From: Candidatus Iainarchaeum sp.
GTDB lineage: Archaea > Iainarchaeota > Iainarchaeia > Iainarchaeales > DTGL01
Assembly (NCBI GenBank): GCA_026413945.1
Contig: JAOAJX010000004.1
Location: 1 to 32,482, forward strand
DNA: 32,482 bases
Direction of reading: 5' to 3'
The notes under the pieces were generated by a model. It was not told where the DNA came from. It did not search any database and worked only from the letters and a program-made list of their open reading frames with translations. Within the stretch, counting starts at the first letter, position 1. Each line of letters begins with the position of its first letter. A program made the translations under genes and the position numbers. Below, piece by piece: positions 15,263-32,482 of the stretch.

Positions 15263-15301
15263 AAAAATACCCAGTGTGTAAAAAAAGGTTACCGCAAAGT
15301 G

Positions 15302-15309
15302 TTTTAAAT
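15302..15309. promoter_or_regulatory. Possible shared TATA element of divergent glyS and nop5
   Basis: The only clear TATA-like motif in the 76-nt glyS/nop5 gap is TTTTAAAT, close to symmetric. It lies about 33 nt before the nop5 ATG (15339) and about 43 nt before the glyS ATG (15262). Both distances are usable by TBP. Two separate promoters cannot be excluded. Confidence 0.3.
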
Positions 15310-15338
15310 GGTTTCTTGCTTATTTTTTGGTTAGGCCT

Positions 15339-16133: not shown

Positions 16134-16206
16134 TTGGCATTCTTTCAGCGGAAAAATACACGAAAATAATAAATAGATCAAGTGCGATATTATTAGTGGT
16201 GATGCA

Positions 16207-16980: not shown

Positions 16981-17067
16981 GGTCAATAGGATTTAGCAGG
17001 AATTGATGAGGAAACTTTTCTCATACATAATTTCTTTTTTTATTTGTTTTTATTCTTTTTTTAAATT

Positions 17068-17730
17068 ATGCGTGAGATTTTCCACGGTGTTTACAAATGG
17101 CAGGAAAAGCTCTGGACAAAAAATCTTGTGCCTGGGCAAAGAGTTTATGGCGAAAAGCTTGCTGTTTATAATGGGGTTGAGTACCGCGAATGGAATCCTT
17201 TCAGGTCAAAACTCGCTGCAGCCATAAAGAAGAAGCTTAAGAGTTTACCATTATATGATGGCTCGAAGGTGCTTTACTTGGGCGTAGCAGAAGGCACCAC
17301 TGCTTCACATATTAGCGATATAATCGGCAGCCGTGGAGTAATTTTGGGAATAGATATAAGTGAGAAATGTATCGCAAAGCTTGTGCAAGTTTCGGAGGAA
17401 AGAAAAAACATATTGCCGTTGGCTGCAGATGCTAACAGGCCTGAAACCTATGCTGAATATGCTAAGGAAATAATGCCAGATATTATTTATCAGGATATTG
17501 CTCAAAAAAACCAAGTCGAGATACTTGAAAAAAACGCAAGGTTTTTCCTGGGAAAGGGTAATTTTGCGATGCTTGCACTTAAGGCACCAAGCATTGATTC
17601 AACATCTAATGCAAAAAGGGTTTTTAGTGAGCAGGAGAGCATGCTTGAAAGAAGTTTTGAGATAAGTGAAAAAATACCACTTGAACCTTTTGAAAAAAAG
17701 CATAGGTTTTACTTGTTGGTGAGAAAATAA
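17068..17730 (+). CDS. flpA: Fibrillarin-like rRNA/tRNA 2'-O-methyltransferase
   Basis: SAM-dependent methyltransferase of the C/D-box sRNP, working with Nop5 and L7Ae. The 220-aa protein has the N-terminal GVYKWQEKLWTKNLVPGQRVYGEKL region, the SAM-binding loop VLYLGVAEGTTASH (68-81), the acidic strand ILGIDIS (92-98), and a probable catalytic tetrad Lys48, Asp143 (IYQDIAQ), Lys172 (LALKAPSID) and His212 (KKHRFYLL). Length is normal for archaeal FlpA. It follows the metalloprotease gene by 87 nt of AT-rich DNA, so it may have its own promoter. Confidence 0.95.
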   Translation: MREIFHGVYKWQEKLWTKNLVPGQRVYGEKLAVYNGVEYREWNPFRSKLAAAIKKKLKSLPLYDGSKVLYLGVAEGTTASHISDIIGSRGVILGIDISEKCIAKLVQVSEERKNILPLAADANRPETYAEYAKEIMPDIIYQDIAQKNQVEILEKNARFFLGKGNFAMLALKAPSIDSTSNAKRVFSEQESMLERSFEISEKIPLEPFEKKHRFYLLVRK

Positions 17731-17823
17731 TTTAAATAGCATATACATAATAAGAGCATTGATATTGTTTTTATGCAAAAAAATCTAAAAAATCCTGCAA
17801 AGTTATGTTGAGTTTATGTAATG

Positions 17824-17831
17824 TTTATAAA
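17824..17831 (+). promoter_or_regulatory. TATA box of nrdD
   Basis: TTTATAAA is a consensus-like archaeal TATA box 50 nt before the nrdD ATG. A start about 25 nt downstream gives a leader of about 29 nt that ends with GGGTGG at 5-6 nt from the ATG. Confidence 0.5.
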
Positions 17832-17881
17832 GATGCACACACTTAATCATTATCGCTTGGCTTTTTTGGTTGGGTGGTAAC

Positions 17882-20002
17882 ATGGAAAAATTCCTGTCCA
17901 AAGTAAAGAAGCGCGACGGCCGAATTGTTCCATTTCAAAAGGAGAAAATAGAAGAAGCAATATGGAAAGCCGCAAAAGCTGTTGGCGGTGAGGACAGGAA
18001 GCTTGCCTCGAAACTTGCTGACAAAGTTGTGCATGAGCTTAAGAAAAAGTTTGGCACAAAAATTCCAACTGTAGAAGAAATACAAGACATGGTTGAAAAG
18101 GTGCTCATTGAAGAGGGCCATGCTAAAACGGCAAAAGCATATATTCTTTATAGGGCAAAAAGATCAGCTATAAGAGATACAAAAGCATTTCTTGCAAAGA
18201 CCGCTAACATAATAGAAGAATATATGAACCAAAAGGATTGGCGTGTAAGGGAAAATAGTAATGCGGGTTATTCATTAAGTGGCATGCAAGCAAGAATCTC
18301 TGAGGCAATTATTTCCGAATATACGCTAAAGCACATATACCCAGCAGAGATTTCAAAGGCACATAAACATGCAAGTTTCCACATACACGATCTTGGCGTG
18401 GGAACTTTTGCAGCTTACTGTGCGGGTTGGTCTTTAAAGCAATTGCTACAAGAGGGTTTTAATGGTGTGGAAGGCAAAGTAGCAGCTAGGCCGGCAAAGC
18501 ATTTCACTGCTGCTGTTGGACAGCTTGTAAACTTCATGGGAACTCTGCAAAACGAATGGGCTGGGGCCCAAGCTTTGAGTTCTTTTGATACATACCTGGC
18601 GCCTTTTGTGGCCAAAGATAAGCTTGATTATAAAAGGGTAAAGCAAGGCATGCAGGAATTTGTGTATTCTCTTAATGCAACATCTCGTTGGGGTAACCAG
18701 GTGCCATTTACAAACATTACACTTGACTGGAGCGTACCCAAGGATTTAAAGGATGTGCCGGCTGTATTTGGCGGAAAAGAAATAAGCGAAACATATGGAG
18801 AATTCCAACAAGAAATGGACTTAATAAATAGGGCTTTCATAGAAGTAATGATTGAAGGCGATATGAACGGGCGAATATTTACTTTTCCTATACCAACATA
18901 TAATATAACTAAGGACTTTGATTGGAACAGTGAAAATGCAGATTTGCTCTTTAAGATGACCTCTAGGTATGGTATACCTTATTTCCAAAACTTTGTGAAT
19001 TCTTCTCTTAAGCCAAGCGATGTAAGAAGCATGTGCTGCAGGCTTCAGCTCGATGTCAGAGAACTTCGCAATAAAACAGGCGGTCTTTTTGGGTCAGGAG
19101 AAAAAACCGGGTCAATAGGAGTTGTGACAATAAACATGCCACAAATAGCGCATTTAACAAAAGACGAGGATAAGTTTATTGAGAGACTTGATTATTTGAT
19201 GTATCTTGCAAAGGAATCTCTCGAGATAAAAAGGAAAGAAGTCGAAAAAAATATGAAAAACGGCTTATTGCCATGGACTAAAAGATATCTCGGCACTCTT
19301 GAATTTCATTTCTCAACAATTGGGCTTATAGGTATGAATGAGGCTTGCCTAAATCTTTTCGGCAAAAGCATCGCTAACAAGGATAGCAAAAAATTTGCTC
19401 TAAAAGTGCTTGATTTCATGCGCTCAAGGCTACAAGACTTCCAAGAGGAGACAGGAAACATATACAATTTAGAAGCCACACCGGGTGAAGGCGCATCGTA
19501 TCGTTTGGCGAGAATAGATGTTAAGAATTATCCTGATATTATAACAGCCGGTACAAAAGAAGCCCCATATTATACGAATTCAACACATCTGCCAGTTGGA
19601 TATACTGATGACATATTTGAAGCTTTAGATCACCAAGATGAGTTGCAATGTAAATACACTGGTGGAACAGTATTGCATGGTTTTATAGGCGAAGAGATGC
19701 CTGATTCAGAAGCATGCAAAAAGCTTGTTAGGGCTATCGCACATAATTATAAACTCCCATATTTTACGATAACACCAACTTTCAGTGTATGCCCAGTGCA
19801 TGGCTATATAGCCGGAAAGCATTACACATGCCCTGCGGATATTGACGGTGGCCAACCAACGAAATGTGGGAAAAGAGCTGAGGTTTATAGCAGAGTTGTA
19901 GGCTATTACAGACCTGTGCAAAACTGGAACACTGGAAAACAACGTGAGTTCGAGGAAAGAAAGCCGTATGATGTAATAAAAGCACTTGAGAAGACAAAGT
20001 AA
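17882..20002 (+). CDS. nrdD: Anaerobic (class III) ribonucleoside-triphosphate reductase
   Basis: Reduces NTPs to dNTPs using an oxygen-sensitive glycyl radical. The 706-aa protein begins with an ATP-cone allosteric domain (about 3-95, VKKRDGRIVPFQKEKI). The ten-stranded barrel follows, with GSIGVVTINMPQIA and GLIGMNEACLNLFG. The C-terminal cysteine/histidine region CPVHGY...HYTCP...KCGK resembles the zinc site, and the glycyl radical loop RVVGYYRPVQNWNTGKQREF places the radical on Gly674. I see three Cys plus His in the metal region rather than a clear four-Cys set. Start ATG 17882 has GGGTGG upstream; the in-frame TTG four codons earlier lacks this. Its activase gene nrdG lies after aspS. 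Confidence 0.96.
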   Translation: MEKFLSKVKKRDGRIVPFQKEKIEEAIWKAAKAVGGEDRKLASKLADKVVHELKKKFGTKIPTVEEIQDMVEKVLIEEGHAKTAKAYILYRAKRSAIRDTKAFLAKTANIIEEYMNQKDWRVRENSNAGYSLSGMQARISEAIISEYTLKHIYPAEISKAHKHASFHIHDLGVGTFAAYCAGWSLKQLLQEGFNGVEGKVAARPAKHFTAAVGQLVNFMGTLQNEWAGAQALSSFDTYLAPFVAKDKLDYKRVKQGMQEFVYSLNATSRWGNQVPFTNITLDWSVPKDLKDVPAVFGGKEISETYGEFQQEMDLINRAFIEVMIEGDMNGRIFTFPIPTYNITKDFDWNSENADLLFKMTSRYGIPYFQNFVNSSLKPSDVRSMCCRLQLDVRELRNKTGGLFGSGEKTGSIGVVTINMPQIAHLTKDEDKFIERLDYLMYLAKESLEIKRKEVEKNMKNGLLPWTKRYLGTLEFHFSTIGLIGMNEACLNLFGKSIANKDSKKFALKVLDFMRSRLQDFQEETGNIYNLEATPGEGASYRLARIDVKNYPDIITAGTKEAPYYTNSTHLPVGYTDDIFEALDHQDELQCKYTGGTVLHGFIGEEMPDSEACKKLVRAIAHNYKLPYFTITPTFSVCPVHGYIAGKHYTCPADIDGGQPTKCGKRAEVYSRVVGYYRPVQNWNTGKQREFEERKPYDVIKALEKTK

Positions 20003-20042
20003 AGCAGAAAATGAAGGCGCAGATGCAGAGAAACTCATTTTA

Positions 20043-20084
20043 GGTTTAAGGCTTTGGCCGAAGCCACGATGAAGCATTAAAACC
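20043..20084 (+). other. Small structured element between nrdD and aspS
   Basis: A 5-bp hairpin GGCTT-TGGCCG-AAGCC (20050-20065) lies inside a second pairing, GGTTT (20043-20047) with AAACC (20080-20084). It could be an nrdD 3' end or an aspS leader structure. No known RNA family is recognised, and chance pairing is possible. Confidence 0.25.
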
Positions 20085-20120
20085 TTTTGTAAATGAATAG
20101 TTATTGCTAAAGGTGGTTTT

Positions 20121-21875
20121 TTGCGCACTCATACATGCGGTGAGCTTAATGAGAAATTTGCTGGCAAAGAAGTAGTGCTTTGCGGCTGGGTGCATACAAA
20201 AAGAAGCCATGGGGGGCTAATTTTTATAGATCTCAGGGATAGGTACGGAATAACTCAGCTTATAGTCAATTCAAAAGACAGCCCAAGTGCATACGATCAG
20301 GCACATAGAGTCGAAAAGGAGTTTGTGATCAGAGTAAAAGGAATCGTTAAAAAGCGCATGCAACCAAACCCAAAGCTAAAAACAGGCAACATCGAGATTA
20401 ATTGCAATGAAATTGAAATACTTAGTGAAGCGAAACAACCGCTTCCAATCGAGATAGCTTCAGAGCTACTTGCAAGTGAAGACACTAGGTTAAAGTATCG
20501 CTACCTAGACCTGCGTAGGCCTGAAATGCAGCAAAACATCATATTGAGGCACAAGCTTGTTAAGGCCATAAGGGATTATCTTGACAGCGATGGCTTTATA
20601 GAAATTGAAACACCAATATTGGCAAAATCAACACCAGAGGGCGCCCGTGACTATCTTGTTCCAAGCAGAGTACATAAAGGAAAGTTCTTTGCGCTGCCTC
20701 AAAGCCCGCAAATATTCAAGCAGCTTTTAATGGTTTCTGGTTTCGATAAGTATTTTCAAATTGCACGGTGTTTCAGGGATGAAGACTTAAGGGCTGACAG
20801 GCAGCCAGAATTTACGCAGCTTGACCTCGAAATTTCATTTGCAGATGAAGAAAAAGTTTTTGAGGTTATTGAGGGTTGCATAGCACATGTGATGAGAGAA
20901 GTAAAAAAAATTGACATTAAGAGACCTTTCCCAAGAATTTCATATGAAGATGCAATGAACAGATTTGGTTCGGACAAACCTGATGTAAGGTTTGATATGG
21001 AGCTTATTGATGTAACAAAATGCTTTGAAAAAACAGGGTTTGAAATATTTAAAGAGATCATAAGAAAAGGCGGGTGCATAAAAGCGCTTGTGGTTGACGA
21101 TAAATACAAAATAACAAAAGATCAACTTAAAGAAATTACTGAAATTGCAAAAACATTTGGTGCAAAAGGACTTATAATAGCGAGAGTGGAGGGAAAAGAG
21201 ATTGACTCCTCTATTGCAAAACATTTAAGTGCATCTGAAAGTAGCAAATTGCTAAAGGAAACAAAGGCAAAGGAAGGCATGCTTCTACTCATTGTAGCTG
21301 CCGACTGGAGAACTGCTTGCATTTCTTTGGGAGAGATAAGGCTAAAGATAGCTGAGTTGCTCTCACTAGTCAAAAAAGAATCTTACTGCTTCTTATGGGT
21401 AACTGACTTCCCACTTTTTGAGTACAATATCGAAGAGAAGAAAATAAATTCAGTGCATCATCCTTTCACTGCCCCAAAAGATGAAGATATAGCAAAAATG
21501 GATAAGGAACCTCTAAAAGTAAGAAGTAGGGCTTATGATATAGTGCTTAATGGCATAGAGCTTGGTGGTGGTAGCATAAGGATACATAATAAAGAGCTAC
21601 AAAAAAAAGTTTTCAAGATACTTGGCCTCTCAGAAGAACAGGCCAAAGAAAAATTTGGCTTTCTGCTTGAGGCATTCGAATACGGAGCACCGCCGCATGG
21701 TGGCATAGCAATAGGCATAGATAGATTTGCAATGCTGCTCGCAGACCAAAAATCAATAAGGCAGGTAATTGCGTTTCCAAAAAATAAAGCATGTCAATCA
21801 TTAATGGACGATGCGCCAAGTGATGTTTCTGAAGAGCAGTTGAAAGAGTTGGGCCTTAAAATAGAAAAGAGTTAG
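20121..21875 (+). CDS. aspS: Aspartyl-tRNA synthetase, bacterial type with GAD domain
   Basis: Class II synthetase of 584 aa, against about 430 for usual archaeal AspRS. The extra length is the GAD-like insertion (about 280-410) that marks bacterial AspRS. The N-terminal OB fold begins MRTHTCGELN and contains CGWVHTKRSHGGLIFIDLRDR; motif 2 is CFRDEDLRADRQPEFTQLD (217-235); motif 3 is GIAIGIDRFAMLLAD. His30 in KRSHGG lines up with the His (31 in Pseudomonas) linked to non-discriminating enzymes that also charge tRNA-Asn; this is from memory of the literature. The start is TTG with AGGTGG at 4 nt, with no better start nearby. The stop overlaps the nrdG GTG by one base. Horizontal acquisition from bacteria is likely. 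Confidence 0.95.
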   Translation: MRTHTCGELNEKFAGKEVVLCGWVHTKRSHGGLIFIDLRDRYGITQLIVNSKDSPSAYDQAHRVEKEFVIRVKGIVKKRMQPNPKLKTGNIEINCNEIEILSEAKQPLPIEIASELLASEDTRLKYRYLDLRRPEMQQNIILRHKLVKAIRDYLDSDGFIEIETPILAKSTPEGARDYLVPSRVHKGKFFALPQSPQIFKQLLMVSGFDKYFQIARCFRDEDLRADRQPEFTQLDLEISFADEEKVFEVIEGCIAHVMREVKKIDIKRPFPRISYEDAMNRFGSDKPDVRFDMELIDVTKCFEKTGFEIFKEIIRKGGCIKALVVDDKYKITKDQLKEITEIAKTFGAKGLIIARVEGKEIDSSIAKHLSASESSKLLKETKAKEGMLLLIVAADWRTACISLGEIRLKIAELLSLVKKESYCFLWVTDFPLFEYNIEEKKINSVHHPFTAPKDEDIAKMDKEPLKVRSRAYDIVLNGIELGGGSIRIHNKELQKKVFKILGLSEEQAKEKFGFLLEAFEYGAPPHGGIAIGIDRFAMLLADQKSIRQVIAFPKNKACQSLMDDAPSDVSEEQLKELGLKIEKS

Positions 21876-22591
21876 TGGTTTTTTTGAAATCAAAAAACAT
21901 ATGTTTTGGTGGTATTCAAAAGACAACGCTTATAGATTTTCCTGGCATGGTTGCATGCACGCTCTTTGTAAATAATTGCAATTTCAGGTGCCCTTTTTGC
22001 CAGAATCCGGATCTGGCAATAGGAAAAGCAAAATGCATAAGCAACGAAGAGATCATGAATTTTCTTGATAAGAGAAAAGGATTGATTGAAGGCGTATGCA
22101 TAAGTGGCGGCGAGCCAACAATTTATGATAATCTTGTTGATTTCACTAAAAAGATTAAAGAAATTGGCTATATGGTGAAAATTGACACCAACGGCTCAAG
22201 ACCAGAGATTATTGAAAAATTTATAAGAAAAAAAACTGTTGACTACATTGCAATGGACTTAAAAGCGCCATTGGAAAAATATTCTATTGCTGCTGGGGTC
22301 AAGGTAGATACAAATGCATTGAGAAAAAGCATTTCTTTAATTCTTGAGGGAAAAATAGATTACGAGTTTCGCACAACCGTGGTGCCAAAAATAATTCTCA
22401 GAGAAGATATTGAAAAAATATGCTTTGAGATTAGGGGTGCCAAAAAATATTTTTTGCAGCAGTTTGTCAACAGCACAGCTCTCCTGGATAAAAGTTTCAG
22501 TGAGATTATACCTTATCCAAAGAGTGTGCTTGAAGAGATGGCCAAAGTTGCCTCAAAGTATGTAAAAAATGTTGAAGTCAGGGCTAATTAA
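21875..22591 (+). CDS. nrdG: Anaerobic ribonucleotide reductase activating protein (radical SAM)
   Basis: Generates the glycyl radical on NrdD using a 4Fe-4S cluster and SAM. The 238-aa protein has the N-terminal GGIQKTTLIDFPGMVACTLF (12-31), the cluster motif C-x3-C-x2-C as CNFRCPFC (Cys35, 39, 42), the GGE motif CISGGEPTI for SAM binding, and DTNGSRPE. This matches the NrdG2/PflA-like subgroup common in archaea. The GTG at 21875 overlaps the aspS stop (TAGTG); a TTG at 21884 giving 235 aa is an alternative, and neither has a strong ribosome-binding site. Placement two genes after nrdD supports its role. Confidence 0.9.
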   Translation: MVFLKSKNICFGGIQKTTLIDFPGMVACTLFVNNCNFRCPFCQNPDLAIGKAKCISNEEIMNFLDKRKGLIEGVCISGGEPTIYDNLVDFTKKIKEIGYMVKIDTNGSRPEIIEKFIRKKTVDYIAMDLKAPLEKYSIAAGVKVDTNALRKSISLILEGKIDYEFRTTVVPKIILREDIEKICFEIRGAKKYFLQQFVNSTALLDKSFSEIIPYPKSVLEEMAKVASKYVKNVEVRAN

Positions 22592-22606
22592 ATAGATAAT
22601 TAATGG

Positions 22607-22624
22607 CGTTTTTTATATTTTACT
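22607..22624 (+). promoter_or_regulatory. Candidate TATA box of tRNA-Arg, T-rich end of nrdG
   Basis: GTTTTTTATATTTTAC lies about 34 nt before the tRNA 5' end, placing the start about 9 nt upstream of the mature tRNA. The same T-rich run could end the nrdG transcript. A second element, TTTATATTA (22632-22640), is too close to the tRNA to direct a start before it. Confidence 0.35.
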
Positions 22625-22649
22625 ATAGTGATTTATATTAGATTTCTGA

Positions 22650-22737
22650 GGGCCTGTAGCTCAGTTGGATAGAGCACCGACCTCCTAATTTCAAAGGAGT
22701 TAGTCGGGTGTCGGGGGTTCAAGTCCCTCCGGGCCCG
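22650..22737 (+). tRNA. tRNA-Arg (anticodon CCU) with 14-nt intron
   Basis: The acceptor GGGCCTG pairs with CGGGCCC (one G-U), with D arm GCTC/GAGC, anticodon stem CCGAC/GTCGG, 5-nt variable loop, T arm GGGGG-TTCAAGT-CCCTC, discriminator G and no CCA. Between the halves of the anticodon stem are 21 nt instead of 7. The extra 14 nt, ATTTCAAAGGAGTT (22688-22701), sit at 37/38. CTCC pairs with GGAG as the 4-bp central helix, with 3-nt bulges TAA and TTA, giving a bulge-helix-loop for the archaeal splicing endonuclease. The joined loop is CTCCTAA with anticodon CCT (22684-22686). The 3' end touches the ileS stop codon on the other strand. Confidence 0.95.
22688..22701 (+). other. Intron of tRNA-Arg(CCU)
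   Basis: Predicted 14-nt intron with cleavage after the second base of each 3-nt bulge (TA|A and TT|A) around the CTCC:GGAG helix. Removal restores a normal 7-nt anticodon loop. Its presence implies a tRNA-splicing endonuclease and ligase elsewhere in the genome. Confidence 0.88.
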
Positions 22738-25602
22738 TTATTTAGTTTTGGTTATTTCAAACCTGAACTCTCTCTGAATTATCTTTTCAAATTCTTTTTT
22801 AATGACCCCACTTTTATTTATTTTTGTGTTTGTTTCTTTCTCTATCCTTTTAACAAATTTTTCCAGAAAAACAACATCGTTACATTCGAGAATAAGACTT
22901 GCCTTTTGCTTTGGCATAAGGCCTTTTACTTTTCTCTCTGCCTGAATCCTTCTCACAAGCTCTCTAAACTCCCATTCATCTTTAAGCCACTGCTCAGCAA
23001 AGGTATCAATACAAACTTTGAAATTTTCAGTTTCAGTGCAAACTAAAGAGCTGTCTTTTGGGAAATTTTCAAGAACTTCAAGAACATTGCAACCAATTTT
23101 TAGTATTTGGGCAACTTTGCTAACCTTAAATTTTGCTTTTGGCTGAACAACAATGCTTCTTAGTGTCCAGCGCCTCCTAAGGTGGTTTTTTTCGCGAAGC
23201 AACAGCACGGCTTGAATTATTTCTAATGCCGATGCAAAGTCCTTTTCCAATTTCTTGTTTATTTTTGCCTTTTTTGACATAGGCATTGAACAAAAGTGTA
23301 TGCTTTCAGGCATATTCTTTGCTCTTAATTCCCTGTAGATATATTCTGAAAAGTGTGGCACTATTGGTGCTAAAAGTTTTGCGATTCCTAAAAGGATCTC
23401 TGAAAAAATTTTGCACAATATTGCCTTATCCTCATCTACGCGATCCCTTATGAGCTTTATATAGTTTCTGCTGAAATCTTCAATCACGAAGTATTCAACT
23501 AGCATCAGAACTCTCCAAAATTCGTAATTCGCATATGCTTGAGTTGCCTCTGAAATTATAGAGTTGTATCTACTCAAAATCCACAAGTCCTCTGTTCTTA
23601 GATCTTTGCCATTTTTCTTTGTTGCTGTTGCATCTTTAAGGTACATTAGGTAATAGTTTGTGGAATTCGTAAAGGTATTGAAAAATCTTCTTATGTCTTT
23701 AAACTCATCCCAGCTAAAAAGCATGTCTGTTCCACGGGAATTTTTGACTAAATAATACCTTAAGTAGTCTCTTGAGTATTCTTTTATAACATCGCTGGGC
23801 ATAACAACATTACCAATGCTTTTGCTCATTTTTCTTTTGTCAATGTCAAGGACCATGCCATGTACTGACACAGCCTTATATGGTGATTTTCCAAAGCATA
23901 TGAGCCCTGCAATTAGCTGAGAATTCCACCAGCCACGAATTTGGTCTGTGCCTTCAAGATTCAAATCAGCTGGCCAGAAGCTCTTGAAAAGCTTTTTTTC
24001 TTTTGGAAAGCCTAACGCAGCCCAGCTCGAAACGCCGGAATCGAACCACACATCAAGCACTTCTGGAATTCTAACCATTTCTCCGCCACACTTGCATTTT
24101 AGCCTAATCTCGTCTATATAAGGCCTGTGAGGCTCTGGCAGTTTTTTAACCCCTGATGCCTTTTTAAGTTCCTCGAGTGTTCCAAAGACATGGTATGAGT
24201 TGCACTTTTTGCATGACCATATAGGTACTGGGGTGCCCCAATAACGCATTCTTGAAATGGGCCAATCGCTCAAAGATTCTAACCAATTTTGCATTCTTGC
24301 TCCAACCCATTCTGGCACCCATCTCACTTTCTTGTTTGCAGCAATAAGCTTTTTTTGTATCTTAGAAACATTCAGGAACCACTGTGGTGTTGAGAGCATT
24401 ATGAGCGGCGTAGAACAGCGCCAGCATATGGGATAATCGTGAGTGTAGCTGTGCTTATAAACAATAAAGCCACTGCTTTCAAGGTCATCTATTATCTCTT
24501 GGTCAACTTCTCTGGCTTTTTTACCAGCGTATTTGCCTGCTTCCTCAAGCATTGTGCCATCAATACCAACAGGGCAAAGTAATGGTAGGCATGCTTTCCT
24601 TCCTGCTTCGTAATCTTCCTTTCCATGCCCTGGTGCACAGTGCACTAAGCCAGTACCAAAATCAAGGGTAACATAGCGGCTACTTGTTACAACACGATAT
24701 GCACCATTTAGTCCAGAATCAATTTTTAGGTTTTTGGCAAGAGGATTGGTGTAATGCATACCTTCAAGCTCTTTGCCTTTTACAACTTTTTCAATTGTGT
24801 AAGCGTATTCTAACTTCTCCATTATACCATGAATAAGTTCTTTAGCAATTATCCATACTTCGCCATTGCTTAGTGTTGCAAAGGCATAATCGAAATCGGG
24901 ATGCACCATAACTCCAGTATTGCCAGGCAAAGTCCAAGGGGTTGTAGTCCATATTATAAGATATGTTTTTTCTTTGCCTACAACTGGAAACTTAACATAT
25001 ATGCTTTCATCAGTAAGTTTTGTATAATTTATTTCATAATAGGCCAAAGGTGTTGCACACCTTGGACAAACATGTATTGGATAATAGCCTAAATAAAGCA
25101 TTTTCTTTTTTTCTGCATTTTTAAAAGCCCACCATATGGCTTCTATGTATTGTGCATCTAATGTTAAGTATGGATTCTCCCAGTCCATCCATACGCCTAA
25201 ATCCATAAATTCGGAGTTCATTGTGTCTATAAACTCAGTTGCAAACTTTTTGCATTCTTCTACAAAATTTGCAATTCCAAAACGCTCAATATCGCCTTTA
25301 TTTGAAAAGCCCAGCTTTTTTTCCACTTTGTGCTCTATTGGCAAACCATGGGTGTCGTAGCCGGGCCTATCAAAAACTTTGTAACCGTGCATGCGCTTTG
25401 AGCGCATTGCAACATCTTTCAAAACCTTGTTGAGTGCGGTGCCCAAGTGTATATGCCCTGTTGCATAAGGCGGGCCATCCATAAGGTAAAATTTCTTTTT
25501 TGCTTTAGAATTTAGTTGCCTCGATTTTTTTGGGATTTCTTTGGCTAACCAAAAGTCTTTTATAAGTTCTTCCTCTTCTCTGCCAAAATCCTTGAGAGGC
25601 AA
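22738..25602 (-). CDS. ileS: Isoleucyl-tRNA synthetase, archaeal type
   Basis: Class I synthetase that charges tRNA-Ile and edits mischarged valine. With the start used here it has 954 aa. It has the HIGH-type motif GHIHLGTALNKVL (near 50), the downstream FDRPGYDTHGLPIEHKVEKKLG, an editing (CP1) domain with TTPWTLPGNTG, CPRC and CKKC zinc pairs, DVWFDSGVSSW, and KMSKS as KRKMSKSIGNV. The anticodon-binding domain follows. I chose TTG 25602 because GGTGATTTTA precedes it, the same layout as several ATG starts in this window; a TTG at 25617 lies upstream of that site. It ends directly against the tRNA-Arg gene. Confidence 0.95.
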   Translation of the reverse strand: MPLKDFGREEEELIKDFWLAKEIPKKSRQLNSKAKKKFYLMDGPPYATGHIHLGTALNKVLKDVAMRSKRMHGYKVFDRPGYDTHGLPIEHKVEKKLGFSNKGDIERFGIANFVEECKKFATEFIDTMNSEFMDLGVWMDWENPYLTLDAQYIEAIWWAFKNAEKKKMLYLGYYPIHVCPRCATPLAYYEINYTKLTDESIYVKFPVVGKEKTYLIIWTTTPWTLPGNTGVMVHPDFDYAFATLSNGEVWIIAKELIHGIMEKLEYAYTIEKVVKGKELEGMHYTNPLAKNLKIDSGLNGAYRVVTSSRYVTLDFGTGLVHCAPGHGKEDYEAGRKACLPLLCPVGIDGTMLEEAGKYAGKKAREVDQEIIDDLESSGFIVYKHSYTHDYPICWRCSTPLIMLSTPQWFLNVSKIQKKLIAANKKVRWVPEWVGARMQNWLESLSDWPISRMRYWGTPVPIWSCKKCNSYHVFGTLEELKKASGVKKLPEPHRPYIDEIRLKCKCGGEMVRIPEVLDVWFDSGVSSWAALGFPKEKKLFKSFWPADLNLEGTDQIRGWWNSQLIAGLICFGKSPYKAVSVHGMVLDIDKRKMSKSIGNVVMPSDVIKEYSRDYLRYYLVKNSRGTDMLFSWDEFKDIRRFFNTFTNSTNYYLMYLKDATATKKNGKDLRTEDLWILSRYNSIISEATQAYANYEFWRVLMLVEYFVIEDFSRNYIKLIRDRVDEDKAILCKIFSEILLGIAKLLAPIVPHFSEYIYRELRAKNMPESIHFCSMPMSKKAKINKKLEKDFASALEIIQAVLLLREKNHLRRRWTLRSIVVQPKAKFKVSKVAQILKIGCNVLEVLENFPKDSSLVCTETENFKVCIDTFAEQWLKDEWEFRELVRRIQAERKVKGLMPKQKASLILECNDVVFLEKFVKRIEKETNTKINKSGVIKKEFEKIIQREFRFEITKTK

Positions 25603-25644
25603 TAAAATCACCTTCAAGCAGTTTTAATAAGTTTGCTAAAAAAG

Positions 25645-25654
25645 TAATATAAAG
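25645..25654 (-). promoter_or_regulatory. TATA box of ileS
   Basis: Minus-strand CTTTATATTA is centred about 47 nt before the TTG start at 25602. A start about 25 nt downstream leaves a leader of about 20 nt containing the GGTGA site. It lies at the end of the S16 protease gene. Confidence 0.45.
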
Positions 25655-25658
25655 GTTG

Positions 25659-26429
25659 CTAAGAAACAATAACAAAAGATGCCAGCTGGGATATATTTTC
25701 AATTTCAATGACCTGCATGCCATACTGCTCATACATAAGCTCGTTCAAATCAACTTTTTTTGGTTCATAATATACTTTTTTGATTAAAAACCCACGGCCG
25801 CGCTGCTCGCTTTCCTTGCGCTCATAAAAAATCACTTCTTTTTGGCCTTTTGGCACTAAAAAATACTTAAAGCCATTCTCTGCTGCAGCCTGTGCTTTTT
25901 CTAAAATTCCGCCGACATGACCTATGGAGCCATTGCTCTGTATCGTGCCTGTTATTGCAACATTGCTCCTTAAGCTTTTACCTTCTATTGCGGCAATCGT
26001 TGCAACACAAATTGCTGCGCCAGCGCTTGGACCGCCAACAAGCAGTGCTTTTGGAGCTTCTACTGAATAAACAACATCCTTTTGAGACAAAGAAACTTTA
26101 GCAAAGCTTTCAGCAACATTTTTTGCTGTTTCTATAGAGTATTGCATATCTGGCTCAACAAAGGGGTTTGTGTTAAAAAGCACTCGGCCTTTGCCATCAG
26201 CAATCTCAACTGTTGCTTTGCATATCACTCCTTGACCATCAGAGGATACTGCCACTACTGGAACTTCAGCACTTCTTTCCTTAAAAGCTGGTTTAGAAAG
26301 TTCATTTCTTGAAAAGGGCTTCTGTAAAGAGTATTCAAAAATTATGGTTGAAGCAATGAAACCCACCAGCACGCCTAACAACAAAACAAATGCAAAAAAA
26401 AGAGCTCTCTTTTTATCCAGAAAAATCAC
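25659..26429 (-). CDS. Membrane-anchored Lon-like (S16 family) serine protease
   Basis: The 256-aa protein has an N-terminal membrane helix (about 9-30, ALFFAFVLLLGVLVGFIAST) after a positive DKKR, then a Lon-type proteolytic domain. The nucleophile is Ser135 in GGPSAGAAI and the base is Lys178 in GGILEKAQAAAENG, with AITGTIQSNGSIGHVGGI between them, the usual S16 layout. There is no AAA+ ATPase domain, so this is a stand-alone protease; orientation of the domain relative to the membrane is not decided here. The start is GTG, with a TATA-like TTTAATAT about 26 nt upstream, fitting a leaderless mRNA. It is divergent from argS. Confidence 0.88.
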   Translation of the reverse strand: MIFLDKKRALFFAFVLLLGVLVGFIASTIIFEYSLQKPFSRNELSKPAFKERSAEVPVVAVSSDGQGVICKATVEIADGKGRVLFNTNPFVEPDMQYSIETAKNVAESFAKVSLSQKDVVYSVEAPKALLVGGPSAGAAICVATIAAIEGKSLRSNVAITGTIQSNGSIGHVGGILEKAQAAAENGFKYFLVPKGQKEVIFYERKESEQRGRGFLIKKVYYEPKKVDLNELMYEQYGMQVIEIENISQLASFVIVS

Positions 26430-26470
26430 CGACTATTTGCTATTAAAACATATTAAAGTAAGTCCCACAC

Positions 26471-26480
26471 TTTTTAAAAT
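26471..26480 (+). promoter_or_regulatory. TATA box of argS
   Basis: TTTTTAAAAT is centred 25 nt upstream of the ATG at 26501, supporting a leaderless transcript from that ATG and arguing against the in-frame ATG at 26483. Confidence 0.45.
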
Positions 26481-26500
26481 TAATGCAGTTTTATTTCGCT

Positions 26501-28234
26501 ATGATTGATTTAAGAAAAATGCTTGTCGAAAGCATTGCAAAAGAGCTTGGCCTTGATGTGGAAAAAATTAATTCTCTTGTTGAAGTTCCGAAGAAAAAGG
26601 AGTTCGGGGATTATAGCTTGCCTTGTTTTGTAATTTCAAAAGAACTCAATAAAAAGGCAAGTGAGATTGCTAGCGACCTTGTGAAAACTCTTTCTTTGCC
26701 AAAAGGTTTTTCAAAGGCCATAGCAGTTGGACCTTATGCGAATTTTTACATAGATCAACGGCAAATAGCTGGACTTGTAATAAACAAAATACTTAGAGAG
26801 AGAAAAAAATACGGGCAAAACAAAATAGGTGCTGGGAAAAGAGTCATGGTTGAATACTCACAACCTAACACCAACAAGCCAATGCATATTGGGCATTTGC
26901 GCAATGACTCAATAGGACTTTCAATAAGCAGGCTTTTTGGCTTTTGTGGCTACGAGGTTATAAAAGCAAACCTTTTCAATGACCGAGGCATACACATATG
27001 CCAAGCGATGTTAGCATACAAGCTATGGGGCAAAAAAGAAACACCTAAAAGCACAAGTCTTAGCGGCGACAAGTTTGTTGGAAAATATTACGTGATGTTT
27101 CACCAGAAAGCAAAGGATAATCCAAAGCTAAATGAGATGGCAAGGGAACTCCTCAAAAAATGGGAAAATAAAGACAAGAAAACGATTGCGCTTTGGAAAA
27201 AGATGCGCTCTTGGGTTCTAAGCGGCTTTGAGAAAACTTATAAGAAGTTCGGTTCTGAGTTCGATGTTTACTTCTTTGAATCTGATTTTTATGACAAGGT
27301 TGAAAGCATAATTAAAGAAGGGCTTGATAAAGGTGTCTTTGTTAAGGATGCTAACGGCACCATAATTGCAAAGTTAGCGCCATTGCCAGATAAGGTTATA
27401 TTGCGAGAGGATGGCACAAGCATATATATCTCAAATGATTTAGTGCTAACAAAACACAAGATAGAGAGATACAAGCTTGATTTAAATGTATTTGTTGTTG
27501 CTAGCGAGCAGAGAGAATATTTCAGGCAATTATTTAGGATATTTGAGCTTTTGGGATATGAATGGCACAAAAAAAATGAGCACCTCAGCTATGGTCTTGT
27601 GCTATTACCAGAAGGAAAGCTGAAAAGCAGAGAAGGCATAGTAATAGATGCTGAAGACTTCATAGAAGTGGTCAAAGAGCTTGCTAAAAAAGAGCTTTTA
27701 AAAAGATACGAAAAGTTGGGCAAAAAAGAGTTGGAAAAAAGGGCTCTTGCAATTGCTGTCGCAGCAATAAAGTTTTCAATGCTAAAAATAGAGCCAAACA
27801 AAGACATAATGTTTGAACCGGAAAAAAGCATATCGTTTGAAGGAAACACAGGACCATATTTGCAATACACATATGCAAGGGCTAAAAGCATAATTAGAAA
27901 GGCTCCAAAGTATAGAAAGAGTTGCACAAATAAAAAAAATTGCCTTGAAGCTGCGCTCAGGGGGCTTTCAGATGAATATGAAAAAGAGCTCATAGTTAAA
28001 TTAGACGCTTTTGAAGATGTTATAAAAAAAGCAATGTATGAAAGGAAGCCAAACATTGTTTGTAACTATTTGATTGAGCTTTGCGAAACATTTAATGCTT
28101 TTTATCATAAGTTGCCTGTGCTTAATGCTGACAGCAAGATGAGGATTGCACGATTAGCACTTGTGAAAGCTACAAGCATAACAATAAGAAATGGACTTTA
28201 CCTTTTGGGCATACCTGTCCTTGAGGAGATGTAA
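26501..28234 (+). CDS. argS: Arginyl-tRNA synthetase
   Basis: Class I synthetase of 577 aa. It starts with the Arg-specific N-terminal domain (FGDYSLPCFVISKELNKK), then VEYSQPNTNKPMHIGHLRND with HIGH at 129-132, NLFNDRGIHICQAMLAYKLWG, and the KMSKS loop in the degenerate form GKLKSREGIVID, which is common in ArgRS. The DALR-type anticodon-binding domain closes the protein. From memory, the NDRGIHIC-x-AMLAY segment is closer to a Bacteroidetes/eukaryote-like branch than to typical euryarchaeal ArgRS; a tree is needed. The ATG 26501 is favoured by the TATA distance. The stop overlaps the next start (TAATG), so both proteins are probably translated as a pair. Confidence 0.95.
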   Translation: MIDLRKMLVESIAKELGLDVEKINSLVEVPKKKEFGDYSLPCFVISKELNKKASEIASDLVKTLSLPKGFSKAIAVGPYANFYIDQRQIAGLVINKILRERKKYGQNKIGAGKRVMVEYSQPNTNKPMHIGHLRNDSIGLSISRLFGFCGYEVIKANLFNDRGIHICQAMLAYKLWGKKETPKSTSLSGDKFVGKYYVMFHQKAKDNPKLNEMARELLKKWENKDKKTIALWKKMRSWVLSGFEKTYKKFGSEFDVYFFESDFYDKVESIIKEGLDKGVFVKDANGTIIAKLAPLPDKVILREDGTSIYISNDLVLTKHKIERYKLDLNVFVVASEQREYFRQLFRIFELLGYEWHKKNEHLSYGLVLLPEGKLKSREGIVIDAEDFIEVVKELAKKELLKRYEKLGKKELEKRALAIAVAAIKFSMLKIEPNKDIMFEPEKSISFEGNTGPYLQYTYARAKSIIRKAPKYRKSCTNKKNCLEAALRGLSDEYEKELIVKLDAFEDVIKKAMYERKPNIVCNYLIELCETFNAFYHKLPVLNADSKMRIARLALVKATSITIRNGLYLLGIPVLEEM

Positions 28235-29733
28235 TGATTATAAGGGTTCCGAAGATAAGAAGCAATGTAATTCCTGAGGAAGAATTAAATAGGCTTCTTA
28301 AAAACATATACCAAAAATACGAGAAACCAGATATAGTTCTTGTAAAAAATGCAATATCTTTTGTTAGGAGGCGTCTTGCTTCGAGAGAGCTTGGCCTTGT
28401 TTCCCGCGCATATGATTTTTCCAAAAGAAAACACGATATGCAAAAAAGATATTCTGGCGAACCATATTTTAACCACCTTATTTCTACTGCGCTTATACTG
28501 AGCGAATATGAAGTTGATGCAAAGACTATATCTGCAGCATTACTTCACGATATACTTGAGGATACTAATGTCCAAAAGGAAGATCTTGAAAAGGAATTTG
28601 GTAAAGAAATTGCAAATGTGGTAGAAGCACTTACCAAAGCAAACAAAGAAAAACGAAGCAACGAGCCATACATGCAGAAGCTTTTGCTCAGCGCTTGCAC
28701 TGACATGAGTGTGCTCACAATAAAAATTGCGGATAAGCTTCATAATCTAAGGACTATAGAGGCATTACCAAAAGGAAAGAAGATAAGGATATGCAAGCAA
28801 GCGTTTGAGTTCTATGCTCCTTTGGCTGAACTTATTGGAATGAAAAAGGCTGCGGAAGAGATGCGTGAAATATGCATATCTGTGCTTTGGCCAAAAGAGT
28901 ATAAAGAACTTAAGGAAAGATTATCTGTAGAGTATACAAAAAAAGAGCTGGAAGTCGATGAAGCAATTTCTATCTTGAACAAGAAAATTGGCGGCAAGCC
29001 TTTTAGATCTTTTTCAATAAAAAAGGCAAAAAAACCATTTTCCCACTATTTTCAAAAGATAAGAGAGGGAAAAATACTTGAAGAATTATACGATTTCTTC
29101 TATATAGTGATATCTGCAAAATCTAAAGATGACTGCTATTTAGCCATGAAGATGGTGCACGAGAGCTTTCATCCAATACCAAGGAAATTTAAAGACTACA
29201 TTGCAACACCAGCTGGAAGCTATAAAGCATTACATACTTCAGTGATTGGGCCTAGTGGCAATCCGATAAAAGTTTATATTATGACTAACGAAGTGTATGA
29301 AATACAAGAAAGAAGCGCTGGCTGGTTTGCTAAAAGCAAGAAGAAACAGCAATTGCCACAGAAAATTGTGTGGCTTGCGCACAGACCAAAAGAAGAGTTT
29401 GAAGAGGCAATAGCCCATGGCCTTAAATGGCAGGATATAACAATATTTGATAGCAAAGGGAAGCCATCAAATATACCAAAGGGCTCAACAGTTATAGACT
29501 TTGCATTTGAAATAGAGCCTACTGTGGCAGAAAACCTTATCGCTGCAAAGATACATGGAAAGTTTGTGCCATTATCAACAGAGCTTAAGCATGCGGATAG
29601 GGTTGAGCTTTTCTTTGCTGAAGAAAAACAGATAAGACCTGAATGGTTAAGGATGGCAAAGCTTTACGAGACCAAGAAAAAAATAGGTCGTCTATTGGCA
29701 AAAGAAAAAGCCGAGGTAGACATTAATTTCTGA
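28234..29733 (+). CDS. RelA/SpoT homolog with intact HD hydrolase and degenerate synthetase
   Basis: The 499-aa protein has the N-terminal layout of long RelA/SpoT enzymes. The HD (p)ppGpp hydrolase domain has GEPYFNH (His81), ALLHDILED (His105, Asp106, Glu109, Asp110) and KIADKLHNLRT (Asp167), all expected catalytic residues. A synthetase-like domain follows (about 255-360) with KFKDYIATP, SYKALHTSVIGPSG and Asp287, but the catalytic Glu of the E-V-Q-I-R-T motif is Lys346 (IKVYIMT), and the Arg of the A-x-R-x-I segment and the Lys-His pair are missing. A TGS domain follows (about 401-463). The helical/zinc-finger/ACT tail of bacterial enzymes is absent. Probable hydrolase only. GAGGAG precedes the ATG, which overlaps the argS stop. 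Confidence 0.9.
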   Translation: MIIRVPKIRSNVIPEEELNRLLKNIYQKYEKPDIVLVKNAISFVRRRLASRELGLVSRAYDFSKRKHDMQKRYSGEPYFNHLISTALILSEYEVDAKTISAALLHDILEDTNVQKEDLEKEFGKEIANVVEALTKANKEKRSNEPYMQKLLLSACTDMSVLTIKIADKLHNLRTIEALPKGKKIRICKQAFEFYAPLAELIGMKKAAEEMREICISVLWPKEYKELKERLSVEYTKKELEVDEAISILNKKIGGKPFRSFSIKKAKKPFSHYFQKIREGKILEELYDFFYIVISAKSKDDCYLAMKMVHESFHPIPRKFKDYIATPAGSYKALHTSVIGPSGNPIKVYIMTNEVYEIQERSAGWFAKSKKKQQLPQKIVWLAHRPKEEFEEAIAHGLKWQDITIFDSKGKPSNIPKGSTVIDFAFEIEPTVAENLIAAKIHGKFVPLSTELKHADRVELFFAEEKQIRPEWLRMAKLYETKKKIGRLLAKEKAEVDINF

Positions 29734-29746
29734 TATTAAGCAAACA

Positions 29747-32482
29747 CTATTCGATATATATTGCTGGCTTGAATGGCATTGCGTCTTTTGCTTTGCTTTT
29801 AGGATCATATTCTACCTTATCTTCAAGTTGCACAATAACATCACATTCAAAAAGCCCTGAAAGGAAGTCCTTTGATGCAGCAAGTATTTTCATTTCATCT
29901 ACAGGCACCATTTCCCTAAGCTCGCTCCACTTTGCTAAGAGCTTTTTTATAATGTTTACAGCATATTGCCCTTTTGCTTTTATTGATTCGTCACTCATAG
30001 CAATCCTTATAGCACTACTTTGGTCCGGTATTTGGAGTTTTTCCTTGAGAAGGCCAAATAAGTTTCTTTTCCACTCACTGCAAACATAGATATAAATCTT
30101 TTTTGGCTTATCAATCTTTGCAAGCTTTTTTATTTCATTCAAATCATCAACAATGTTGGCAACGATACTCTCTGCAGCGCTGATCTTTTGATCTGTCTTT
30201 AGCTTTTTTGGAATTCTTGCGAAGAATATTGAGCTCCTGTTGCCTAGCTTTTGCCAAAGCTCCTCTGCTAGGTGAGGCATAAATGGAGCGATACAAACAG
30301 CCCAATTGCTCAAAAAATAATACATAAGTTGCTTATTATACTTATTTTTTCTATGCTCATACCAGTTAAAATCCTTCAGAAGCTGGAAAGATATGCACTG
30401 TAGAGCTCTTCTGAACTCCATTTTTTCCATTGCCTGGACATATTCATTTATGCGCTCATTTATCCTATTGTAAAACCACTTTTCTGGAAGGTTCAGCCCC
30501 TTAATTTTACCCTTTTTGGCTTTTGACGCATTTCTGAAAAGCAACTCTACAAAAGAATTCAGTTTAGAGAAGCTCTTTTCAATCTCCCTTTGCTGCCAAT
30601 TTAGTTCTTCCCATGGTTCAACGATATTCATTAGGAAAAACCTGACGAAGTCGGCACCTATGGAGTCACATAAGTCATTTATAAGAACAACGTTGCCTTT
30701 GGATGATGACATTTTTTTACCTTCAAGAACAACCATGCCTAGGTTAAGTGTTCCTTTTTGTCTTTTATTTGGTGGGAAAATCGCAGTGTGTTGGAAAATG
30801 GAAAAAGACATGTGATTTGGTATTAGCTCAATAGCACTCACATTATACGCCAAAGGATACCAATATTTGAATGAGTCATGCATTTCCTTGAGAACACTCT
30901 TTTTAATCCCATATTTTTTTGAGATCTCAGCTATTCTTCCCTTACCAAGAAAGATGTAATCAAATACTTCTGGCTCAAGCTTTTCTGCGGGCACCTGTTT
31001 TATTATGTTTGCAATAGTAAAATAAGCCATATAAATTGTTGAGTCTGCAAGCGGCTCTAGTATTAACTCTTTTTGGAATGGAAAGTTTGTTCCGAGCCCC
31101 TTAGATCTTGTACACGGTTTGTCATCAAGCCACTCGAAGACCTTCTCATAATTTATCTTGAAAAGTGCTGGCACTATTTGCATTCCTGACAAGGTTTTCT
31201 TTGATTCCTCCTTCCACCTTTCATCAGAATATTTCACAAACCATTGATCTTCTAAAACGCGCACCACACACTGAGAACCACACCTGCACACAACCTTCCC
31301 TTCAAGCTCATAAAAAATAGCTGCTTGGTTTTTTTCTATGAGCTCTTTTTTAACTAGCTCTTTCGCCTTATTTACTTGCATACCCGCATATTTGTTACAA
31401 TTGCTGTTCATGATTCCTTTGTGGAATCCGAGCTTGTAAACAGTTTTTTTTGCTTCTTCGAGTTTTTCAGCATCAGATTGGCTTTTTATTCCCAAATCAT
31501 TGCAAATCTTCACCGCTGATAGATTTCCATAGCCTTCAAGCTCTATTATTGGAATTGGCTTTATTGAAGTAAGCAAATCGTAATTTAGACCAAAGCTTTC
31601 AGCCAAAGCTTGGTTTTGCTGCAATTCTCTTAGAGCGATGTAATCTATTGGTGCATCACTCGGTACTGATGTTACAATGCCTGTGCCTGTTGCAGGATCA
31701 CAAAAGTCTGCTGGGAGAACAATAATGTTCCTTTCAATACCGGGTGCAAGCACCTGCCTGCCAACAAGCTCAGAGCCATTTAAAGTACCAACTTTCTCTA
31801 TATCCTTAACTTGTTCTTTGTACTTGTCGAAAAACTCTTTGCTTGCAATCCATTGCTCAGCCCCTACTTTTACCTTCGCATATTCAATATCTGGCCTAAC
31901 CCAAAGATTTGTTTGGCCAAAAACTGTTTCTGGTCGAAGAGTTGCAGCAATCAAATAAGTATTCTCATCGAGCTTGAACTTAAGCAAAGTATATTCCTGT
32001 ATGCCGAGGCCTTCGCCTTCGCTAAGGTCATGATCACCAACAGGATTCTTGCACTGTGGACAATATCGCACAGGATAAGCCTTCTTTATAATATATCCTT
32101 TTGATGCAAGTGTCTTGTATTGCCATTCTATAAAGCGCTTATATTGAGGATCTATCGTTTTAAGCTCACGCCTCCAATCAATGCCAAGGCCTAATTTCTT
32201 AAAACCTGCTTTATATCCATATTTTGCTTTGTTTATCATATAATCAACGAAGCTTTCTGGGCTTTCCGTAAGATATTTGAAATCTTCTTTTGGAATCCTT
32301 GCATTCTCATGGAATATTTTTATTGTTTTTTCATTTCCTTTTTGCAATGCTTCCACTGCAGCAATGACAGGAGTGCCTGAGACGTGCCATCCCATAGGCA
32401 TTAGCACATTAAATCCAGTAAGCATCTTGTACTTTGCGGCTACGTCCGTTGCGGTATATGTGCGTGCATGTCCTATATGCAT
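29747..32482 (-). CDS. leuS: Leucyl-tRNA synthetase, archaeal type, 5' end outside the window
   Basis: Class I synthetase; 911 aa are visible and the N-terminus is cut by the right edge, since the HIGH motif (MHIGHARTY) is the very first visible sequence and real LeuRS proteins have roughly 40-50 residues before it. Next come VLMPMGWHVSGTP, a CP1 editing domain with TLRPETVFGQTN and GTGIVTSVPSDAPID, a CPQC zinc-type pair, and KMSKS as KKMSSSKGNVV. The arrangement and the C-terminal extension agree with archaeal/eukaryotic LeuRS. It is convergent with the RelA/SpoT homolog, 13 nt apart. Confidence 0.95.
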   Translation of the reverse strand: MHIGHARTYTATDVAAKYKMLTGFNVLMPMGWHVSGTPVIAAVEALQKGNEKTIKIFHENARIPKEDFKYLTESPESFVDYMINKAKYGYKAGFKKLGLGIDWRRELKTIDPQYKRFIEWQYKTLASKGYIIKKAYPVRYCPQCKNPVGDHDLSEGEGLGIQEYTLLKFKLDENTYLIAATLRPETVFGQTNLWVRPDIEYAKVKVGAEQWIASKEFFDKYKEQVKDIEKVGTLNGSELVGRQVLAPGIERNIIVLPADFCDPATGTGIVTSVPSDAPIDYIALRELQQNQALAESFGLNYDLLTSIKPIPIIELEGYGNLSAVKICNDLGIKSQSDAEKLEEAKKTVYKLGFHKGIMNSNCNKYAGMQVNKAKELVKKELIEKNQAAIFYELEGKVVCRCGSQCVVRVLEDQWFVKYSDERWKEESKKTLSGMQIVPALFKINYEKVFEWLDDKPCTRSKGLGTNFPFQKELILEPLADSTIYMAYFTIANIIKQVPAEKLEPEVFDYIFLGKGRIAEISKKYGIKKSVLKEMHDSFKYWYPLAYNVSAIELIPNHMSFSIFQHTAIFPPNKRQKGTLNLGMVVLEGKKMSSSKGNVVLINDLCDSIGADFVRFFLMNIVEPWEELNWQQREIEKSFSKLNSFVELLFRNASKAKKGKIKGLNLPEKWFYNRINERINEYVQAMEKMEFRRALQCISFQLLKDFNWYEHRKNKYNKQLMYYFLSNWAVCIAPFMPHLAEELWQKLGNRSSIFFARIPKKLKTDQKISAAESIVANIVDDLNEIKKLAKIDKPKKIYIYVCSEWKRNLFGLLKEKLQIPDQSSAIRIAMSDESIKAKGQYAVNIIKKLLAKWSELREMVPVDEMKILAASKDFLSGLFECDVIVQLEDKVEYDPKSKAKDAMPFKPAIYIE

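What the first reader, a model, noticed from the sequence alone, without database searches (positions are those of the whole stretch)
28234..29733. Archaeal RelA/SpoT homolog with complete hydrolase and broken synthetase
RelA/SpoT proteins of the long HD-synthetase-TGS type are rare in archaea. This one keeps every HD-domain catalytic residue (His81, His105, Asp106, Glu109, Asp110, Asp167) and the FKDY and guanine-stacking Tyr330 regions, but has Lys346 where the synthetase needs Glu and lacks the conserved Arg. It would remove (p)ppGpp or a related alarmone without making it. Possible uses are clearing alarmone from a partner or host cell, countering toxic small alarmone synthetases, or sensing translation through the TGS domain.
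Basis: partly seen in the sequence, partly recalled or inferred. Interest (0 to 1): 0.75.

Follow-up and report, generated by a model that had tools for sequence, protein, structure and literature searches.

The report
Archaeal alarmone hydrolase of split pair
This gene encodes an enzyme of a DPANN-type archaeon that very probably only destroys the starvation signal (p)ppGpp, and its genome and 33 related genomes also carry a sister enzyme built to make that signal, so this order of archaea appears to have split one two-way bacterial enzyme into a maker and a breaker.

Summary
The gene is real: 28234-29733 encodes a 499-aa long RelA/SpoT homolog (HD, synthetase and TGS domains). All eight HD catalytic residues checked are intact. 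The synthetase looks dead: Glu324 (B. subtilis Rel numbering) is Lys346, and three conserved Arg are lost.

Across the window's order (75 genomes) this split holds without exception. Hydrolase type (H): HD intact in 34/34, Glu324 lost in 34/34 (Lys in 32). Synthetase type (S): Glu324 in 55/55, HD metal set complete in 0/55. H never occurs without S. All 80 sampled bacterial and woesearchaeal long RSHs are bifunctional by residues.

S keeps the TGS His (55/55) and the zinc finger, as ribosome-sensing RelA does; H has mostly lost the His and always the zinc finger. H usually lies directly behind argS (24/34 loci).

Best reading: the hydrolase-only half of an archaeal RelA/SpoT-like pair, matching the Moraxellaceae RelA + SpoT[Hs] split, apparently evolved independently. 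Activity is inferred from sequence.

The parts
28234..29733 (+). H-type long RSH, 499 aa: predicted monofunctional (p)ppGpp 3'-pyrophosphohydrolase
   Evidence: AF2 model pLDDT 77, Foldseek best hits Rel/RelA/SpoT
28408..28839 (+). HD hydrolase domain, R72 H81 H105 D106 E109 D110 D167 N171 all intact
   Evidence: PF13328 110.7 bits; invariant in 34/34 orthologs
29032..29325 (+). pseudo-synthetase domain; ATP-site Arg lost; D287, KxKD (318-321), Y330, H334 kept
   Evidence: PF04607 49.2 bits
29269..29271 (+). codon of K346 = B. subtilis Rel E324 (catalytic Glu lost; Lys in 32/34 orthologs)
29443..29613 (+). TGS domain lacking the conserved His (Glu instead)
   Evidence: PF02824 46.8 bits
26483..28234 (+). 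argS, arginyl-tRNA synthetase; stop overlaps the RSH start codon by one base (TAATG)
   Evidence: Pfam; argS directly upstream of H in 24/34 loci, 21 within 60 nt
29747..32482 (-). leuS-type class I aminoacyl-tRNA synthetase, convergent, 13 bp from the RSH stop (runs off the window)
   Evidence: Pfam class I IleRS/LeuRS/MetRS/ValRS family; same convergent neighbour in many H loci

Best explanation
The protein is the hydrolase-only half of a two-gene alarmone system in a DPANN-type archaeon (probably Iainarchaeota/Diapherotrites). An ancestral bifunctional long Rel was most likely acquired and duplicated before the order radiated. The S copy (C11, 612 aa) kept the synthetase and the ribosome/tRNA-sensing TGS His and zinc finger, and lost the HD. 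The H copy (this gene) kept the metal-dependent HD hydrolase, while its synthetase became a retained non-catalytic pseudo-synthetase and it lost the zinc finger and TGS His. S would make (p)ppGpp (or a close relative) on starved ribosomes; H would split off the 3'-pyrophosphate and reset the signal. H sits mostly behind argS, probably as an operon, so its expression may follow tRNA-charging capacity. SHOWN (sequence): the domain set, reciprocal residue patterns, co-occurrence, clades and synteny. INFERRED: catalytic activities, substrate identity, ribosome dependence of S, regulation through argS, regulatory role of the pseudo-synthetase, direction of the duplication.
For: Second RSH in the genome. 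Reciprocal residues without exception: H 34/34 intact HD and 0/34 Glu324; S 55/55 Glu324/Asp264/Arg241/Arg269, and 0/55 keep all of H53/H77/D78/D144. H never without S (0 of 34); 30 genomes have S alone. All 80 sampled outside long RSHs keep both active sites. Careful IQ-TREE: H 100/100, S 99/96, other long RSHs 99/91, each one group. Domain conservation follows function: mean pairwise identity in H is HD 50%, SYN 43%, TGS 38%; in S it is HD 25%, SYN 49%, TGS 52%. dN/dS below 0.5 in every domain where computable, so the pseudo-domains are not free pseudogene sequence. TGS His: S 55/55, bacteria 40/40, H 3/34; ZFD Cys/His invariant in 46 aligned S, motif absent from 34 H. S mostly carries RelA-like ExDD/AxDD, H KxKD, bacterial Rel RxKD; EXDD is the RelA form (PMC3153485). 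Precedent: A. baumannii SpoT (PMC9974481).
Against: No activity was measured, and (p)ppGpp was not detected in the two archaea tested in PMC8646023, neither of them DPANN. 30 S-bearing genomes, including near-complete ones (G035 99%, G057 97%), have no complete H gene, and most have no other intact HD_4 hydrolase, so S can apparently exist without H. The window's H is more divergent than its genus mates and lacks the C-terminal ACT-like domain. The outside RSH sample was chosen by HD-motif patterns, so its bifunctionality is biased upward on the HD side.
Confidence: 0.8

Rival explanations
1. The HD domain hydrolyses another phosphorylated nucleotide (for example (p)ppApp, PAPS or NADPH, as reported for some MESH1/SAH enzymes) and is not the partner of S.
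For: HD-fold homology to MESH1 and SAHs is detectable. Some small alarmone hydrolases are reported to act on NADPH (abstract of PMC9765508).
Against: Far closer to long Rel (6yxa 2.7e-76 against MESH1 6.8e-16). Never found without S. Full R/H/H/D/E/D/D/N set of long Rel.
Confidence: 0.1
2. A decaying, non-functional RSH: the synthetase is lost and the rest is drifting, as the short C-terminus of the window member suggests.
For: Long branch against genus mates; lost ACT-like tail in this genome; a genus mate (G004) has lost TGS internally.
Against: All eight HD residues are invariant in 34 genomes of 11 families; dN/dS well below 1; open frame and argS coupling kept; Lys replaces Glu324 in 32/34, not random residues.
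Confidence: 0.04
3. A variant on the origin only (compatible with the best explanation of function): the split did not arise by duplication inside the archaea; H and S came from two separate bacterial donors.
For: The unrooted tree cannot place the root; the midpoint root falls on the S branch.
Against: Sampled bacterial and woesearchaeal long RSHs form one group apart from both H and S (99/91), so no sampled donor is nearer to one than to the other. Sampling was limited to 80 loci.
Confidence: 0.25

Closest known systems
Moraxellaceae SpoT[Hs] (A. baumannii SpoT, PDB 7qpr) with RelA[hS]
   Same: Long RSH with intact HD, dead pseudo-synthetase, paired with a synthetase-only, HD-dead paralog; TGS repurposed away from tRNA recognition according to PMC9974481.
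   Different: Archaeal and order-wide. It keeps the Mg Asp (D264), the guanine-stacking Tyr and KxKD, whereas SpoT_Ab lost the Asp and Tyr (S263, N304) and the Gln (T321); it loses Glu324 and ATP-site Arg. No zinc finger, shorter C-terminus, argS neighbour.
Bifunctional bacterial Rel[HS] (B. subtilis Rel, 6yxa)
   Same: Best sequence and fold match; same HD-SYN-TGS order.
   Different: Synthetase catalytic and ATP-site residues lost, TGS His lost, ZFD lost.
RelA[hS] of beta/gammaproteobacteria (for the partner S)
   Same: Intact synthetase, degenerate HD, TGS His and ZFD kept, mostly ExDD/AxDD in place of RxKD.
   Different: Archaeal clade; neighbours are a KaiC-like ATPase, triosephosphate isomerase and a CBS-domain protein.
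RelA/SpoT annotated in DPANN genomes (PMC8407392)
   Different: The passages read report presence only; no split into H and S types was found there or in the other papers searched.

Membership tests
Long RSH (RelA/SpoT homolog) | HD + synthetase + TGS domains in one chain | tested here: met
   NCBIfam TIGR00691 347 bits, below its curated cut-off of 499
Long RSH (RelA/SpoT homolog) | fold of Rel/SpoT | tested here: met
   Foldseek 6yxa E 5.8e-30; 7oiw catalytic half TM(target) 0.90, rmsd 2.0
Long RSH (RelA/SpoT homolog) | ACT/RRM and ZFD regulatory C-terminus (usual, not universal: some RshC lack ACT, PMC3153485) | tested here: not met
   no ZFD motif in any H; window member also lacks the ACT-like tail
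Hydrolase-only long RSH (SpoT[Hs] kind) | intact HD catalytic residues | tested here: met
   8/8 residues, 34/34 orthologs
Hydrolase-only long RSH (SpoT[Hs] kind) | synthetase catalytic residues lost | tested here: met
   E324->K346, R241->A, R269->V, R328->M
Hydrolase-only long RSH (SpoT[Hs] kind) | a separate synthetase-only RSH in the same genome | tested here: met
   C11 RSH
Hydrolase-only long RSH (SpoT[Hs] kind) | measured (p)ppGpp hydrolysis without synthesis | not testable with these tools
   needs enzymology
SpoT proper (beta/gammaproteobacterial ortholog) | groups with proteobacterial SpoT in a tree | tested here: inconclusive
   H is its own clade apart from all sampled bacteria, proteobacteria included, but canonical RelA/SpoT sequences were not added
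Small alarmone hydrolase (MESH1/SAH) | HD domain alone | tested here: not met
   synthetase and TGS domains present

The most novel reading that the evidence does not exclude
An archaeal order runs a complete two-enzyme stringent response on archaeal ribosomes: S senses uncharged tRNA through the TGS/ZFD elements, H resets the signal. H's pseudo-synthetase, which keeps the guanine-stacking Tyr, the Mg Asp and a basic KxKD loop but has a nearly fixed Lys for Glu324, acts as a guanine-nucleotide sensor controlling hydrolysis, and expression is tied to argS.
Probability: 0.3. Interest if true: 0.85.

Novelty: new variant of a known kind. Interest (0 to 1): 0.62.

Why it matters
The stringent response is regarded as bacterial (and plastid); long RSHs were described as lacking in archaea (PMC3153485) and (p)ppGpp was not found in the archaea tested (PMC8646023). 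Here an archaeal order keeps a maker/breaker pair under selection, with ribosome-sensing elements preserved only on the maker. The split parallels Moraxellaceae RelA/SpoT[Hs] and appears independent, which gives a natural replicate of RSH subfunctionalisation and makes 'do archaea use (p)ppGpp, and can a long RSH read an archaeal ribosome?' directly testable with two purified proteins.

Tried and rejected
Single-sequence genome-contig scan found nothing; the profile scan found bacteria and one woesearchaeon but no named member of the window's order, so the species name and phylum remain unproven. No archaeal SSU rRNA found in this assembly. Ppx/GppA as an alternative degrader: absent from all 87 genomes. 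Contamination or chimera: rejected on synteny. Host-clearing role: dropped once S was found. Structure of S was not modelled, because loci from the genome search are not on the folding tool's list of allowed inputs.

Full report
WHAT IS THERE. The ORF 28234-29733 (+, 499 aa) is as described. It carries HD_4, RelA_SpoT and TGS domains, matches the spoT_relA subfamily at E 2e-103 but below that model's full-length cut-off, and is closest among solved proteins to B. subtilis Rel. An AlphaFold2 model built on bacterial and woesearchaeal Rel relatives (mean pLDDT 77, pTM 0.65) finds Rel, RelA and SpoT as best fold matches; the catalytic half superposes on S. aureus Rel with rmsd 2.0. The relative placing of domains in the model should not be trusted (pTM 0.65).

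RESIDUES. On an alignment numbered by B. subtilis Rel, all eight HD residues examined are kept in the window protein. In the synthetase domain the catalytic Glu324 is Lys346, Gln326 is Tyr348, and Arg241, Arg269 and Arg328 are Ala265, Val292 and Met350. The Mg-binding Asp264, Asp298, the guanine-stacking Tyr308 and His312 remain.

THE PARTNER. It does: a 612-aa long RSH at C11:131574-131897 (domain match). Its synthetase keeps R241, K243, D264, R269, D298, Y308, H312, E324, Q326 and R328, while its HD keeps H53, H77 and E81 but has D78->E, D82->K, D144->S and N148->K. It has TGS and ACT domains and the CC...HRxxC zinc-finger pattern.

ORDER-WIDE SPLIT. In the 75 genomes of the window's order, 64 have a RelA_SpoT match. 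The long proteins fall into two types. H type: 34 proteins, HD set complete in all, Glu324 in none (Lys 32, Arg 1, Asp 1). S type: 55 proteins used for the counts, Glu324 in all, the HD metal set in none. Every H genome also has S (two of these S genes, in G020 and G069, are interrupted in the assemblies), and 30 genomes have S without a complete H (G045 has a contig-edge HD fragment that may be H). As a control, all 80 best outside relatives (79 bacterial, one woesearchaeal) keep both active sites; the scan used HD motifs, so it favours intact HD domains.

EVOLUTION. A careful tree puts H (100/100), S (99/96) and the outside long RSHs (99/91) each on one side of a branch, and within H and S the larger groups follow the host families. 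This fits one acquisition and an early duplication, but the unrooted tree and limited sampling do not prove it. Conservation tracks activity: in H the HD is the most conserved domain, in S it is the least. Synonymous rates exceed replacement rates in every domain where the ratio could be computed, pseudo-domains included, so the dead halves are retained for a structural or regulatory purpose.

REGULATORY PARTS. The TGS His is present in 55/55 S and 40/40 outside RSHs but in 3/34 H (Glu in the window protein). The zinc finger is invariant in 46 aligned S and its motif is absent from all H. The 295-298 motif is RxKD in bacterial Rel, KxKD in H and most often ExDD or AxDD in S; EXDD is the RelA form and RXKD the Rel/SpoT form (PMC3153485).

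NEIGHBOURHOOD. argS lies directly upstream of H, same strand, in 24 of 34 loci, within 60 nt in 21, with overlapping or abutting ends in 10, including TAATG here (start codons were chosen mechanically). leuS or alaS usually converges from the other side. In one genome the series reads argD-argC-argB-argS-H, and in two others H follows an argH-like gene (by reading the sequences; not domain-searched). S is directly followed by a KaiC-like ATPase in 18 of 22 loci and lies near triosephosphate isomerase and a CBS-domain protein. No promoter or transcript evidence was sought.

KNOWN OR NEW. Subfunctionalised long RSH pairs are known: beta/gammaproteobacterial RelA, and the hydrolase-only SpoT of Moraxellaceae, solved and assayed in A. 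baumannii (PMC9974481). DPANN RelA/SpoT genes have been reported as present in 69.0% of Diapherotrites (PMC8407392); in the phylum searched here 65 of 87 genomes have a RelA_SpoT domain, which together with genome size is why I think it is Diapherotrites/Iainarchaeota. That assignment is inference. I found no paper describing the split in archaea in the library available. The pair is therefore a new variant of a known kind.

MECHANISM AND LIMITS. Most likely S makes (p)ppGpp when archaeal ribosomes stall with uncharged tRNA and H removes the 3'-pyrophosphate. The pseudo-synthetase differs from SpoT_Ab in keeping the guanine-binding Tyr and Mg Asp, which leaves open nucleotide sensing. Not shown: any activity, any alarmone in these cells, the effect of argS coupling, and how S-only genomes clear the signal (no Ppx/GppA in any genome; no intact HD_4 enzyme in most).

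Noticed in passing
window 13766-32482: Aminoacyl-tRNA synthetase-rich stretch: class II ProRS-like (13766-15262 -), AspRS-like (20121-21875 +), class I ValRS-like (22738-25617 -), ArgRS (26483-28234 +), LeuRS-like (29747-32482 -).
   Followed up: partly
L065 4473-5555 (minus strand), and L064, L069, L070, L073, L076, L078, L055: A third PF04607 type of about 361-395 aa in several relatives (small synthetase-like, with QDIGGCRA...DGYRSIH...VEIQIRS...ETVDFF), in genomes both with and without H.
   Followed up: partly
L120 (genome G035) and L085 (genome G057): Near-complete genomes with S but no H and no other intact HD_4 hydrolase; how the alarmone is removed is unexplained.
   Followed up: partly
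L014 682-2133 +: H of a genus mate lacks the TGS domain internally while keeping the C-terminal extension; the window H keeps TGS but lost that extension.
   Followed up: no
L112 2820-7022 +: S gene flanked by a CBS-domain protein with an uncharacterised C-terminal part and by a KaiC-like ATPase; the KaiC-like gene directly follows S in 18 of 22 loci.
   Followed up: partly
L117 (G069 C102): The S gene of G069 is broken by stops/frameshifts in the assembly although H is intact.
   Followed up: no
L111 2734-3351 +: Separate 206-aa synthetase-only RSH in G070, a genome without H.
   Followed up: no
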